Assembly: GCA_002341815.1 (NCBI GenBank)
Contig: DDOT01000001.1
Span: 2,246-15,342, forward strand
Length of the DNA stretch: 13,097 bases
Direction of reading: 5' to 3'
Origin: Thiobacillus sp. UBA2487
GTDB taxonomy: Bacteria; Pseudomonadota; Gammaproteobacteria; Burkholderiales; Sulfuriferulaceae
Under the pieces are notes generated by a model. That model worked only from the letters and a program-made list of their open reading frames with translations, made no database searches and was not told the origin of the DNA. The position numbers and the translations under genes were made by a program. Below, one piece after another: positions 1,809 through 9,945 of the stretch (its first letter is position 1; each line of letters starts with the position of its first letter).

Positions 1809-3077
1809 TTACAAACGGGTAATACCCATGGCTTTCAGCACATATTTTTCATAAACGGGCTCCGAGTGCCCCGTCTTCATCTTGTACATGAAGTATTTCT
1901 CGAAAGCAACCTTGGCCAAATGCACCCACTTACCCTTTTTCGCCCAAGTCACATTGCGCGGCGGAATCTGCGGGAGGGCAACGAAAGCAGCGCCGGTGTC
2001 ACCCATATCCGCCAGGCAGATGGTATTCCATGTGCCTGTGGTCGTCGCAGGTTTTCCTTCGAGCTCGTCTTTGATATTGTGCACGATTGCGGTCACCATG
2101 GACTCAATCATATAACCGGTTTTTGGCGTACCGAGTGGCACCGGCGTTTCTTCAACCGGCGGAATGGCAATACAGACACCTGCCGAGAAAATATTCTTAT
2201 AGGCCTTGCTGCGTTGATACTGATCAACCATCACAAAACCACCCGGATTACACAGGTTTTCAACTTCGGCAACGGCTTTGGCGCCACGGAATGGGGGCAG
2301 CATCATCGAGAATTTAAAGTCGATGACGTGGTCGCGAATTTTTTCCTTGAGGTCGTTGTATTCCTCAACGTACATCTTGCCATTTTCAACCTTGCTCACC
2401 TTGGCGTTGCAGATCCACTTAATGTGCCGATCGCGCATCTCGCCTTCCAGCAAGCTTTTTGAATCACCAACACCACCCAAACCAAGGTGACCGATGTAGG
2501 GCTCAGAGGTAATATAGGTCATTGGTACTTGATGACGCATTTTACGGCGACGCAAATCGGTTTCCAACGCCATTGCATATTCGTAAGCAGGACCAAAGCA
2601 AGATGCGCCCTGGAAAGCACCAACCACCACATGACCGGGATTCTTCAAAAATTCAAGGTAATCTTCATACGCTTTTTCTGCATGATCAACCGTACATACC
2701 GAGTGAGTAAAACCGCCTTCTGGCCCGGCACCTTCCACCAATTCAAAGGCCAAACGCGGTCCAGTGGCGATCAACAGGTAGTCGTACTTAACTTCTTCAC
2801 CATCTGCCAAGACCAGGCGATTATTTTGCGCATCAATTTTGTCGGCACGTTTGGCAATAAAGTTAATCCCACGCCGTTCAAGGTAGGGACGAATCTGTAT
2901 CGTGGTTTCTTGACGTTTACGCCAACCCAGCGCAACCCATGGATTGGAAGGGACAAACTGAAACGTTTCCGACGCATTAATCAGGGTAACTTGATGCGAC
3001 TTGTCCAACGCTTCGCGCAGTTCATAAGCGGCTGGCGTACCGCCCGTGCCGGCTCCCAATACAACGATGTGTGCCAT
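1809..3077 (-). CDS. sqr: Sulfide:quinone oxidoreductase
   Basis: This 422-residue flavoprotein oxidises sulfide to sulfane sulfur (polysulfide or low-molecular-weight persulfide) and passes two electrons to the quinone pool at the inner membrane. The N-terminal FAD fold is VVLGAGTGGTPAA (residues 5-17), followed by FQFVPSNPWVALGW (39-52). The three catalytic cysteines of the SQR family are present: C128 (HSVCTVDHA), C160 (QGASCFGPAYEYA) and C354 (NTICLADMGD). The closest protein I recall is the crystallised Acidithiobacillus ferrooxidans SQR, with cysteines at 128, 160 and 356 and the shared block PKTGYMIESMV. Retention of all three argues against flavocytochrome c (FccB) or NADH dehydrogenase II. 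The C-terminal region (WVHLAKVAFEKYFMYKMK, MGITRL) corresponds to the membrane-associating helices; the protein ends about a dozen residues earlier than the Acidithiobacillus one. AAGG lies about 9 nt before the ATG. It is last in the cluster, 96 nt after the rhodanese gene, and may also have its own promoter. Confidence 0.95.
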   Translation of the reverse strand: MAHIVVLGAGTGGTPAAYELREALDKSHQVTLINASETFQFVPSNPWVALGWRKRQETTIQIRPYLERRGINFIAKRADKIDAQNNRLVLADGEEVKYDYLLIATGPRLAFELVEGAGPEGGFTHSVCTVDHAEKAYEDYLEFLKNPGHVVVGAFQGASCFGPAYEYAMALETDLRRRKMRHQVPMTYITSEPYIGHLGLGGVGDSKSLLEGEMRDRHIKWICNAKVSKVENGKMYVEEYNDLKEKIRDHVIDFKFSMMLPPFRGAKAVAEVENLCNPGGFVMVDQYQRSKAYKNIFSAGVCIAIPPVEETPVPLGTPKTGYMIESMVTAIVHNIKDELEGKPATTTGTWNTICLADMGDTGAAFVALPQIPPRNVTWAKKGKWVHLAKVAFEKYFMYKMKTGHSEPVYEKYVLKAMGITRL

Positions 3078-3132
3078 AGATTTTAACCTTATTGAACGAA
3101 AAATTTACTGCGGAATATTAGCATACGTTGAT

Positions 3133-3160
3133 ATTGTAGTGAAACCATACATCAACGCAA
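3133..3160 (-). promoter_or_regulatory. Possible internal promoter for sqr
   Basis: In the 96-nt gap before sqr, the minus strand reads TTGCGT (3160-3155), 16 nt, then TACAAT (3138-3133), a fair sigma-70 -35/-10 pair. The same stretch carries an inverted repeat CGTTGAT (3126-3132) and ATCAACG (3151-3157) that overlaps the -35, which could be an operator or an mRNA hairpin. It would allow sqr expression independent of the cyd promoter. Confidence 0.35.
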
Positions 3161-3173
3161 ATTTCAGAATTAC

Positions 3174-3554
3174 TCAACCACCAAAATCGGTTTTATCTTC
3201 TACGATAGGCTCATGATGCTTGATCCATGCCTCAAAACCACCTGCCATGGAAACGGCTGCGGTATAGCCCAACCGTTGCAGTGATTGCACTGCTAATGCT
3301 GAACGACCACCTGTCCGGCAATAAATCAGTAACGCGGCAGACTTGTCGAGCAAGCTGGGATGATCTGGTGTTTTAAATTCTAATACACCACGCGGAATAT
3401 TGACCGCGCCCGGCAAGCTGCCTGCCAGAAACTCATATTCTTCACGCACATCAATCACGCACGCATTTTGGCCCAGCATGACAAGTGCGCCGATCACATC
3501 GACCTCACGTATTTGAGCCTTGGCCTCAGCAACCATCTGTTGCGGGGTCATCAT
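3174..3554 (-). CDS. Single-domain rhodanese (sulfurtransferase)
   Basis: This 126-residue cytoplasmic protein has one rhodanese domain: VIDVREEYEFLAGSLPGAVNIPRG (residues 33-56) and the active-site loop CRTGGRS with catalytic Cys79, then SMAGGFEAW near the C-terminus. Rhodanese domains carry sulfane sulfur as a cysteine persulfide and transfer it between thiosulfate, glutathione persulfide, sulfite or protein acceptors. Between persulfide dioxygenase and SQR genes it most likely moves SQR-derived sulfur or combines persulfide with sulfite to give thiosulfate; that role is inferred from context. There is no signal peptide. The start is preceded by AAGGAG, 12 nt before the ATG. A second ATG follows immediately and would shorten the protein by one residue. 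The ribosome binding site overlaps the stop of the haemoglobin gene and the gap is 14 nt, so the two are likely co-translated. Confidence 0.9.
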   Translation of the reverse strand: MMTPQQMVAEAKAQIREVDVIGALVMLGQNACVIDVREEYEFLAGSLPGAVNIPRGVLEFKTPDHPSLLDKSAALLIYCRTGGRSALAVQSLQRLGYTAAVSMAGGFEAWIKHHEPIVEDKTDFGG

Positions 3555-3568
3555 CTATGTATCACTCC

Positions 3569-8500: not shown

Positions 8501-8541
8501 TTGTCACAATTTGTCATCATTTCGACATCAATCTGACATGT
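8501..8541. promoter_or_regulatory. Candidate activator enhancer: nested TGTCA repeats
   Basis: Four half-sites lie 10-11 bp apart: TGTCA at 8502 and 8512, CGACA at 8523 and TGACA at 8534. The outer pair and the inner pair are both inverted and share the same centre near 8520, making a nested dyad on one face of the helix. The block is about 140-175 bp upstream of the sigma-54 promoter, where an enhancer-binding activator normally sits. A further TGTCA with an inverted TGACG lies at 8339-8351, by the predicted start site. Confidence 0.6.
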
Positions 8542-8583
8542 ATTTTTCTTTCGCCTACCAAACAACCCAGCCGGGCGCCAATA

Positions 8584-8623
8584 TTGACATACATAACCCG
8601 AAAAAAATGGGTTAGAATGTCAA
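8584..8623. promoter_or_regulatory. Large inverted repeat over the activator gene promoter
   Basis: The arm TTGACATACATAACCC (8584-8599) is matched in inverse by GGGTTAGAATGTCAA (8609-8623), with one mismatch and one extra base, around an A-rich centre. A third TTGACAT follows at 8626-8632, just before the start codon. The arms contain the same TGACA/TGTCA unit as the 8501-8541 block. A possible -10, TAGAAT, lies at 8613-8618 within the right arm, so binding here could repress the activator's own transcription. I see no good -35 at normal spacing. Confidence 0.55.
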
Positions 8624-8646
8624 AATTGACATAAGCGATATTGAAC

Positions 8647-9945
8647 ATGCCGCACGGATCACTGGCCGAATTGTTATCGTATCTGGAAGAACAACCAGAA
8701 CCCCGAATTCTGCTCGACAAAAATTACACTATCATCGCAGCCAATCGCGCCTACCGCGACACGTTTGGCGGTCACCAACCCATGGTTGGCCGCCACTGCT
8801 ATGAGGTGTCACATCATTACACACGTCCCTGTGACCAGGCAGGCGAAACCTGCCCATTAAAAGCCAGCCTGCATAGCGGCCACGTTCAAAGAACCTTGCA
8901 TTTACACCATACCGCTCGCGGCGAAGAACATGTCGATGTTGAATTGACACCCATTCGTAATCGACAAGGTGAACTGACGTGGTTTGTTGAAATGATGAAC
9001 CCGATCAAACAAGCCAGCGCCTCTCCCGATCGGCGTGGCCTCGTTGGGCGTTCCGCCAGATTCAATCACATGCTCGAATTGATTGAACGGGTAGCACCCT
9101 CAGAGGCTGCCGTGGTGTTATTGGGCGAGTCCGGAACCGGTAAAGAGTTGGTGGCAGAATCGATTCACAATGCCAGTCCTCGCTGCAAAGGACCTTTTGT
9201 TCCTGTGGATTGCTCCGGTGTCACCGAAACCCTGTTTGAAAGCGAACTGTTCGGTTACGAAAAAGGCGCATTCACCGGGGCCACTCACCGTAAACAAGGG
9301 TTGGTAGAATCCGCCAGCGGCGGAACATTATTTCTGGACGAGATTGGCGATGTGCCTCTCAGCTTACAAGTCAAATTGCTGCGCTTGTTAGAAACCGGCA
9401 CCTATCGTCGCGTCGGTGGCATTGAACCCCTGCGCGCCAATTTTCGCCTGATTTCTGCCACCCATCGTCCGCTAAAGACCATGGTTGAACAAGATCTGTT
9501 TCGCAAAGATTTATACTACCGAATCAGCACATTCCCCATCCATTTACCATCGCTGTCTGAACGTCGTGAGGATATTCCATTACTGGCCAAGACCTTACTC
9601 AGTAGAATCAGCCCTCACCGCAATTTAATCCTGCATCCCGACAGCGTGGCCTTATTGTCCCGACATGATTATCCAGGCAACATTCGTGAACTGCGCAATA
9701 TCCTGGAACGGGCCAGTCTGCTTGCCGACAACGACACGCTGATGCCCGAACACTTGGGCTCTGAATTTGTCACCGCGCCACCCATCAATAGCAACCCGTT
9801 TTTTGGCACAGACATCATTCCGTTAGATGCGCTTGAACAACGCTACCTGCAATGGGTAACCGCCCACAGCACAACCGATCGCAAACATTTGGCTGAAAAA
9901 TTGGGCATCAGCGAACGAACGCTGTATCGCAAACTAAGAAACTGA
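8647..9945 (+). CDS. fisR: FisR-like sigma-54 activator sensing sulfane sulfur
   Basis: This 432-residue cytoplasmic enhancer-binding protein has an N-terminal PAS-like sensor (about 10-120), an AAA+ domain and a C-terminal Fis-type helix-turn-helix (KHLAEKLGISERTLYRKLRN). The AAA+ domain has Walker A GESGTGKE (160-167), the sigma-54-contacting GAFTGA (207-212), Walker B TLFLDEIGD (227-235) and FRKDLYYRI. The sensor holds C51, C62 and C69 in a GRHCYEVSHHYTRPC...ETCP motif. Counted from the in-frame TTG at 8641 these become 53, 64 and 71, the numbers I recall for the redox cysteines of Cupriavidus FisR, which detects reactive sulfane sulfur and activates pdo-sqr. I prefer the ATG at 8647; neither start has a strong ribosome binding site. 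It faces the cyd-sdo-sqr cluster, which has a sigma-54 promoter. NorR is excluded by the lack of a GAF domain and by length. The family is certain; the FisR function is inferred. Confidence 0.85.
   Translation: MPHGSLAELLSYLEEQPEPRILLDKNYTIIAANRAYRDTFGGHQPMVGRHCYEVSHHYTRPCDQAGETCPLKASLHSGHVQRTLHLHHTARGEEHVDVELTPIRNRQGELTWFVEMMNPIKQASASPDRRGLVGRSARFNHMLELIERVAPSEAAVVLLGESGTGKELVAESIHNASPRCKGPFVPVDCSGVTETLFESELFGYEKGAFTGATHRKQGLVESASGGTLFLDEIGDVPLSLQVKLLRLLETGTYRRVGGIEPLRANFRLISATHRPLKTMVEQDLFRKDLYYRISTFPIHLPSLSERREDIPLLAKTLLSRISPHRNLILHPDSVALLSRHDYPGNIRELRNILERASLLADNDTLMPEHLGSEFVTAPPINSNPFFGTDIIPLDALEQRYLQWVTAHSTTDRKHLAEKLGISERTLYRKLRN

What the first reader, a model, noticed from the sequence alone, without database searches (positions are those of the whole stretch)
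1809..9945. Cytochrome bd, persulfide dioxygenase, globin, rhodanese and SQR in one unit opposite a FisR-like sulfane-sulfur sensor
Seen: nine same-strand genes (cydP-cydA-cydB-cydX-ybgE-sdo-trHb-rhodanese-sqr) with overlaps or short gaps, one sigma-54 promoter at the front, one terminator at the end, and a divergent sigma-54 activator with the FisR-type cysteine triad. Known: SQR reduces quinone, persulfide dioxygenase clears the persulfide, and cytochrome bd resists sulfide where haem-copper oxidases do not; Cupriavidus FisR controls pdo-sqr only. Inferred: this organism puts the sulfide-tolerant terminal oxidase itself under sulfane-sulfur control, making a self-contained sulfide respiration and detoxification module.
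Basis: partly seen in the sequence, partly recalled or inferred. Interest (0 to 1): 0.82.

Follow-up and report, generated by a model that had tools for sequence, protein, structure and literature searches.

The report
Sulfide-sensing switch for bd-oxidase operon
A sulfur bacterium appears to keep its sulfide-proof oxygen-using enzyme and its sulfide-removal enzymes in one gene set behind a sulfur-sensing switch, and the same kind of switch sits beside that oxygen-using enzyme in a range of other bacteria.

Summary
Confirmed and widened. This Sulfuriferula-like betaproteobacterial MAG carries nine co-directional genes, cydP-cydA-cydB-cydX-ybgE-pdo-trHb-rhodanese-sqr, between a perfect -24/-12 site and a strong terminator. 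They diverge from a PAS-AAA+-Fis activator with the FisR cysteine triad.

The layout is conserved. Of 13 genus genomes with this CydA, seven have intact fisR (pdo intact in all seven). In five, fisR is fragmentary, pdo is broken or absent and sqr is missing, while cyd, trHb and rhodanese persist. A palindrome, TGYCA-N4-TGRCA, lies beside fisR in 60 of 66 loci (shuffles 3.5). A paralogue facing a second sqr has the spacer-less form.

FisR relatives face cyd in 28 of 77 usable best-scoring named loci and in 8 of 79 matches from 369 genomes of the class. 'Cyd-facing' needs 17 changes on the FisR tree. Pairing this sensor type with cytochrome bd is therefore recurrent in Beta- and some Gammaproteobacteria, not peculiar to this organism. 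Eight text searches showed no report of it.

Co-transcription, inducer and FisR/RpoN dependence are inferred, not shown.

The parts
8647..9945 (+). fisR1: PAS_4 sensor, AAA+ sigma-54 activator, Fis-type HTH; cysteines 51/62/69 (ORF can be read from TTG 8641)
   Evidence: triad invariant in 40 of 40 aligned PAS domains
8618..8631 (.). candidate FisR1 operator box 1, TGTCA-N4-TGACA
8576..8589 (.). candidate FisR1 operator box 2, one mismatch
8364..8379 (-). sigma-54 -24/-12 element TGGCACGCGCTTTGCA
8170..8304 (.). MITE-like element with 15-bp exact terminal inverted repeats, in the operon leader
7918..8139 (-). cydP
   Evidence: NF045611 above cut-off; start chosen
6323..7921 (-). cydA
   Evidence: PF01654
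5116..6255 (-). cydB
   Evidence: TIGR00203
4981..5100 (-). cydX
   Evidence: PF08173
4723..4974 (-). ybgE
   Evidence: PF09600
3963..4667 (-). pdo (persulfide dioxygenase, ETHE1-like)
3569..3973 (-). truncated haemoglobin
   Evidence: PF01152
3174..3554 (-). single-domain rhodanese, CRTGGRS loop with Cys79
   Evidence: PF00581
1809..3077 (-). sqr (sulfide:quinone oxidoreductase, Acidithiobacillus ferrooxidans type)
1755..1789 (-). intrinsic terminator after sqr

Best explanation
This is a FisR-controlled sulfide-respiration and detoxification operon. Proposed working: sulfide entering the cell is oxidised to persulfide or polysulfide. That sulfane sulfur cross-links cysteines 51/62/69 in the PAS domain of FisR1 (inferred from Cupriavidus FisR). 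FisR1, bound at the TGYCA-N4-TGRCA boxes beside its own start codon, then drives sigma-54 polymerase from 8364-8379 through cydP...sqr. SQR passes sulfide electrons to quinone, PDO and rhodanese dispose of the persulfide, and cytochrome bd re-oxidises quinol where sulfide blocks haem-copper oxidases. The globin's role is open. Shown here: gene content, conserved order, conserved promoter and operator, joint loss of fisR, pdo and sqr. Inferred: co-transcription, inducer, FisR and RpoN dependence. The FisR-cyd pairing is a repeatedly formed arrangement; this clade carries the pdo-trHb-rhd-sqr set behind cyd as well.
For: Same layout in G008, G010, G013, G014 and G017, and without sqr in G016. 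A rearranged version, pdo-cydA-cydB-cydX-trHb-rhd-sqr, opposite FisR in another family (L231). Operator in 60 of 66 loci against shuffle mean 3.46, max 9, and in 18 of 24 FisR1-type loci of the class-wide draw. Relaxed -24/-12 in 22 of 30 cyd-facing regions against 0.31 (rule loosened after looking). FisR, pdo and sqr broken or missing together in 5 of 12 genus genomes where fisR can be judged. A Cupriavidus metallidurans homologue, 54.7% identical with the same triad, faces pdo-sqr. RpoN present. bd-type oxidase insensitive to sulfide and haem-copper oxidases inhibited in P. aeruginosa (PMC10968556, abstract and passages).
Against: No expression data. Five genomes keep cyd without an intact FisR. 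A 135-bp insertion lies between promoter and cydP here. The exact box occurs 19 times in this genome (reversed control 3), so the box alone does not define targets. 8 of 30 cyd-facing regions lack even the relaxed -24/-12, and 47 of 79 class-wide matches face genes I did not assign. A. baumannii FisR responds to sulfide without these cysteines (PMC7315123), so the triad is not proof of the signal.
Confidence: 0.74

Rival explanations
1. FisR1 does control this operon, but its PAS domain senses something else (oxygen or redox through flavin, haem or a metal site, NO, or thiol oxidants); the sulfide genes merely share a low-oxygen niche.
For: The PAS model's nearest solved folds include flavin PAS domains (NifL, LOV) and haem DosP; His56 is invariant with the cysteines; 26 of 77 named FisR relatives face ccoG; 7 of 30 cyd-facing regions also carry an FNR-like box.
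Against: Window-type FisRs face pdo or sqr in 12 of 24 class-wide loci, and cyd with pdo or sqr in 3 more. FisR decays together with pdo and sqr while cyd stays. The triad spacing is that of a Cupriavidus homologue facing pdo-sqr.
Confidence: 0.17
2. Two transcription units: FisR and sigma-54 drive only the cyd part, and pdo-trHb-rhd-sqr has its own promoter; contiguity is not co-regulation.
For: Gaps of 55 bp before pdo and 96 bp before sqr; a terminator-like hairpin in ybgE in this genome.
Against: No sigma-70-like site found in those gaps. The hairpin is not conserved in the eight relatives tested. pdo and sqr are lost with fisR, although ybgE stays.
Confidence: 0.14
3. In this strain the control is decaying: the MITE-like insertion in the leader has uncoupled cyd from FisR.
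For: Insertion between promoter and cydP absent from the aligned relatives; repeated fisR loss in sister genomes.
Against: fisR is full length and 72-82% identical to its genus orthologues, the -24/-12 is perfect, and all nine genes are intact.
Confidence: 0.07

Closest known systems
Cupriavidus FisR with pdo-sqr (C. pinatubonensis, Li 2017, seen here only as cited; C. metallidurans locus L200 examined)
   Same: Same regulator architecture, cysteine spacing 11 and 7, divergent sulfide-oxidation genes, sulfane-sulfur sensing reported in citing passages
   Different: 54.7% identical; no cyd genes next to it; its pdo and sqr are only distant relatives of the window's (31% and under 40% tblastn matches to the references used); its palindrome has a 3-bp spacer
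Acinetobacter baumannii FisR with A1S_1708-1711 (PMC7315123, passages)
   Same: Divergent sigma-54 activator driving pdo-sqr on sulfide; cydAB also sulfide-induced in the same organism
   Different: cydAB lies at another locus; FisR lacks the cysteines
FisR2 facing a second sqr in the same genus and other families (L059-L069)
   Same: Same architecture and triad; faces an SQR 59-64% identical to the window's, directly or behind a small ORF
   Different: 39-45% identical to the window's FisR1; half-sites abut (TGTCATGACA); no oxidase genes
Pseudomonas aeruginosa CIO / E. coli cytochrome bd under sulfide (PMC10968556, abstract and passages)
   Same: bd-type oxidase keeps respiration going in sulfide and is raised by it
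   Different: No dedicated sulfane-sulfur sensor beside the oxidase in the passages read

Membership tests
FisR (sigma-54-dependent sulfane-sulfur activator) | Regulatory domain, AAA+ sigma-54 domain, Fis-type HTH | tested here: met
FisR (sigma-54-dependent sulfane-sulfur activator) | Three conserved cysteines with 11 and 7 spacing | tested here: met
   residue numbers of the Cupriavidus protein are recalled
FisR (sigma-54-dependent sulfane-sulfur activator) | Same subfamily as a Cupriavidus FisR facing pdo-sqr | tested here: met
   54.7% over 99% of the query; FisR tree, where L200 is a long branch
FisR (sigma-54-dependent sulfane-sulfur activator) | Divergent target with -24/-12 promoter; RpoN in the genome | tested here: met
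FisR (sigma-54-dependent sulfane-sulfur activator) | Activation by sulfane sulfur | not testable with these tools
   needs an experiment
Sulfide:quinone oxidoreductase | SQR fold with catalytic cysteines (128, 160, 354 here) | tested here: met
   catalytic role of the positions recalled from A. ferrooxidans SQR
Persulfide dioxygenase (ETHE1 type) | Full-length match to solved PDO/ETHE1, THVHADH and GH/GD motifs aligned | tested here: met
   ligand roles recalled
Cytochrome bd with small subunits | CydA, CydB and CydX families | tested here: met
NorR (NO-responsive sigma-54 activator) | Full NorR model | tested here: not met
   265.7 bits, cut-off 476, residues 127-365 only; sensor is PAS
Single operon | One transcript across all junctions | not testable with these tools
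   spacing, conserved order and absence of internal promoter-like sites only

The most novel reading that the evidence does not exclude
FisR is not just a pdo-sqr regulator but a widespread direct switch that puts the sulfide-tolerant terminal oxidase (cytochrome bd), and in other lineages the cbb3-maturation gene ccoG, under sulfane-sulfur control. It has been recruited many times through one operator, TGYCA-N4-TGRCA, with a paralogue kept apart by removal of the 4-bp spacer. This could supply the missing regulator for sulfide induction of bd oxidases in many Proteobacteria.
Probability: 0.55. Interest if true: 0.72.

Novelty: new variant of a known kind. Interest (0 to 1): 0.64.

Why it matters
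Sulfide induction of cytochrome bd is documented, but in the passages read no dedicated sensor beside the oxidase is named. A FisR-type sensor, a shared operator and a sigma-54 promoter in front of cyd make the question directly testable: does sulfane sulfur itself choose the terminal oxidase? The operator offers a way to look for FisR regulons, the FisR1/FisR2 spacer difference a clean test of how paralogues stay separate, and the repeated joint loss of fisR, pdo and sqr a natural experiment on what the sensor is kept for.

Tried and rejected
NorR-type NO regulator: rejected as a label. Sigma-70 control of the whole operon: the scan of 1600-10600 found 3 sigma-70-like sites (shuffle mean 10.2), none upstream of cydP. 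Known RNA element in the leader: no Rfam match. Attenuator in ybgE: hairpin not conserved. Loose -24/-12 scan of the window (up to 3 mismatches) gives 33 matches against 29.8 by chance, so only the exact site is informative. The first strict -24/-12 scan demanded GC at -12 (13 of 66 regions at 11 or 12 of 12, shuffles 0.09) and missed Thauera/Azoarcus sites of the form TGGCACGN4TTGAT; the relaxed count was set after seeing those sequences. The operator was first seen by eye in 8 sequences, then counted on a set that includes relatives of them; the class-wide set is the cleaner test, though it may share species with the named set. My ORF picks for the first faced gene were wrong in some GC-rich loci (four of ten returned no family) and were replaced by tblastn labels. 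Labels use a fixed reference set: 64 of 177 FisR rows stay unassigned, 17 of them with under 1.5 kb of DNA upstream, and some 'sulfide' labels in the low-identity group rest on 22-29% matches to an SQR-like reference. Three of the 80 named loci (L088, L097, L141) dropped out of the count for short FisR alignments; two of them face cyd. One search scored at most four candidates per genome, so its counts are lower bounds. The FisR tree is FastTree only and flags long branches; the loss count rests on a CydA+CydB tree, not a species tree.
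Full report
WHAT IS THERE. The window is G000:C113:2246-15342 of a MAG of 1.78 Mb in 188 contigs, 93.9% complete. The nearest named loci in the scan are Sulfuriferula and unnamed proteobacterial MAGs. On the - strand lie cydP (7918-8139), cydA, cydB, cydX, ybgE, pdo, trHb, rhodanese and sqr (down to 1809), each with an open frame, at gaps of -4, 67, 15, 6, 55, -11, 14 and 96 bp. A terminator hairpin follows sqr, and nadB comes next. On the + strand fisR1 (8647-9945) diverges; moaE, moaA and moaC lie beyond it.

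REGULATORY DNA. Upstream of cydP is TGGCACGCGCTTTGCA (8364-8379, -). In the genome TGGCACRN4TTGCW has two exact hits, this one and one on C176 that I did not follow; at up to one mismatch there are 51+39 sites against 16+16 for the reversed control. RpoN is encoded. Comparable sites stand at this place in the relatives' intergenic regions. Beside fisR lie TGTCA-ATTT-TGACA (8618-8631) and a one-mismatch copy (8576-8589). In 66 regions between fisR and an assigned divergent gene (own plus 65 of 80 named loci), TGYCA-N4-TGRCA at up to one mismatch occurs in 60 (shuffle mean 3.46, max 9) and at least twice in 19 (shuffle mean 0.05, max 1). By spacer 0 to 7 the exact counts are 1, 0, 0, 3, 26, 1, 1, 2 of 66, and at up to one mismatch 5, 5, 7, 16, 60, 11, 10, 7. 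In the class-wide draw 18 of 24 FisR1-type loci have the box, against 20 of 55 lower-identity ones; a -24/-12 core of at least 10 of 12 occurs in 15 of 24 and 7 of 55. For the 30 cyd-facing regions, a core relaxed to allow TTGA occurs in 22 (shuffle mean 0.31, max 3), a relaxation made after looking; in the 36 other regions it occurs in 9. Against specificity, the exact box occurs 19 times in this genome (reversed control 3), so by itself it does not define a regulon.

THE PARALOGUE. FisR2 (39-45% identical to the window's FisR1) faces a second sqr, directly or behind a small ORF, in 11 fetched loci. There the half-sites abut: exact in 9 of 11 regions, 11 of 11 at up to one mismatch, while the N4 form is exact in 0 of 11 and near in 1. 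In this genome FisR2 ends contig C175, and a 62%-identical SQR starts contig C69, so their adjacency here is an inference.

CONSERVATION AND JOINT LOSS. Of 17 same-genus genomes searched, six hold a full-length FisR1 orthologue, 72-82% identical. G008, G010, G013 and G014 show the whole order, G017's contig ends within sqr, and G016 lacks sqr. Thirteen genus genomes including this one hold a CydA at least 72% identical. FisR is intact in seven and out of sight in G002, whose contig starts at cydP. In G003, G004, G005, G011 and G012 only fisR fragments remain in place, pdo is fragmentary (absent in G012), and no sqr follows apart from weak traces in G011 (E 0.004) and G004 (E 0.02-0.07); cydP-A-B-X-ybgE, trHb and rhodanese remain. 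Pdo is intact in 7 of 7 genomes with intact fisR and 0 of 5 without; ignoring kinship that has probability 1/792 (my arithmetic). On a CydA+CydB tree broken genomes sit beside intact ones: G004 with G008 (100), G003 with G016 (100), and G011 and G012 within a clade (100) that includes intact G013, G014 and G017. If losses are not reversed this needs at least three, and on the tree as drawn five. A box at the expected place survives only in G011; a -24/-12 core of at least 10 of 12 survives in G011 and G003. Whether these genomes have another pdo was not examined. G001, G006 and G007 hold only distant CydA homologues, and the incomplete G009 and G015 none.

BREADTH. A named-genome scan with the FisR1 PAS alignment found 502 relatives and kept the best 80. 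Of these, 77 gave a FisR alignment over 300 residues. Their near divergent genes are cyd 28 (18 with pdo or sqr-like genes behind), ccoG 26, pdo/sqr/transporter 7, trHb 1, unassigned 15. This set is ranked by similarity and includes close kin, so it is no census. In an even draw of 369 genomes of the class, 67 had a match at E 1e-85 or better. The 79 non-own matches face cyd 8, sulfide genes 23, trHb 1, unassigned 47; of the 24 at 50% identity or more, cyd 6, sulfide genes 12, trHb 1, unassigned 5. On a 177-protein tree, 113 labelled rows need 17 changes between cyd-facing and other. Two cases stand out. G086 has pdo-cydA-cydB-cydX-trHb-rhd-sqr opposite FisR with a 12-of-12 -24/-12 (L231). Pseudoalteromonas piscicida, a gammaproteobacterium, has FisR opposite cydA-cydB-cydX followed by two long ORFs that look like cydDC by eye (L201).

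SENSOR. The three cysteines and His56 are invariant in 40 of 40 aligned PAS domains, and the triad is present in 77 of 77 named and 77 of 79 class-wide relatives. AlphaFold2 gives a PAS fold (pLDDT 88); the nearest solved PAS domains include flavin- and haem-binding ones, so a cofactor is not excluded. I had no coordinates from which to measure cysteine distances. A review passage (PMC9774590) says Cupriavidus FisR senses reactive sulfur through disulfide and tetrasulfide links among three conserved cysteines; another (PMC12170894) adds raised ATPase activity. Against this, A. baumannii FisR lacks those cysteines yet drives a sulfide response (PMC7315123).

PHYSIOLOGY. In P. aeruginosa the bd-type CIO is unaffected by sulfide while the other oxidases are inhibited at micromolar levels, and cioA rises about two-fold with NaHS (PMC10968556). 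This genome also encodes a haem-copper oxidase subunit I (PF00115), which I read as cbb3 from the look of it and of a neighbouring ORF (recalled signature). A switch to bd under sulfide would therefore be meaningful.

LITERATURE. Eight text searches, judged from listings, and passages of PMC7315123, PMC8148161, PMC9774590, PMC9952342, PMC12170894 and PMC10968556 showed no report of FisR facing or controlling cyd. The library holds open-licence papers only, and the primary FisR paper (Li 2017) was seen only as cited.

VERDICT.

Noticed in passing
window 8170-8304: MITE-like element with 15-bp exact terminal inverted repeats between the sigma-54 site and cydP; the 15-mer has 13 matches at up to one mismatch in the genome (control 1). 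Its ends recur elsewhere, its middle did not in the loci held.
   Followed up: partly
L090 8245-9651 and other Azonexus/Dechloromonas loci: FisR relatives face ccoG (cbb3 oxidase maturation) in 26 of 77 named loci; L090 and L143 score above the TIGR02745 cut-off. A second oxidase-linked FisR arrangement.
   Followed up: partly
L117 8851-9831; L108, L129, L133: FisR relatives face a SLAC1/TehA-family transporter, possibly a sulfite exporter (recalled for fungal SSU1 relatives), which would fit PDO making sulfite.
   Followed up: no
L096, L102, L121, L124, L125, L130, L135 upstream of cydA: FNR-like boxes (TTGAY-N4-RTCAA) in 7 of 30 cyd-facing regions, shuffles 0.11, and in 0 of 36 other regions: possible dual oxygen and sulfur control of bd.
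   Followed up: no
L005 6105-7535 and L151 1-1242: Own FisR2 and second SQR each end a contig; relatives suggest they are divergent neighbours, with a spacer-less TGTCATGACA operator.
   Followed up: partly
L257-L309: Lower-identity FisR relatives with PCSxHGEHC-type motif face genes outside my reference set; several lie near a roughly 1150-1210 aa ORF that looks like Mfd (by eye).
   Followed up: no
window 4786-4821 (-): Hairpin with T-run inside ybgE (-22 kcal/mol in the fold), found in this genome only among nine tested.
   Followed up: yes
window 3569-3973 (-): The truncated globin carries Cys97-x2-Cys100; globin and rhodanese persist in the genomes that lost fisR, pdo and sqr, hinting at a cyd-linked role.
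   Followed up: no
G000:C176:1842-1857: The only other exact TGGCACRN4TTGCW site in the genome; its gene was not examined.
   Followed up: no
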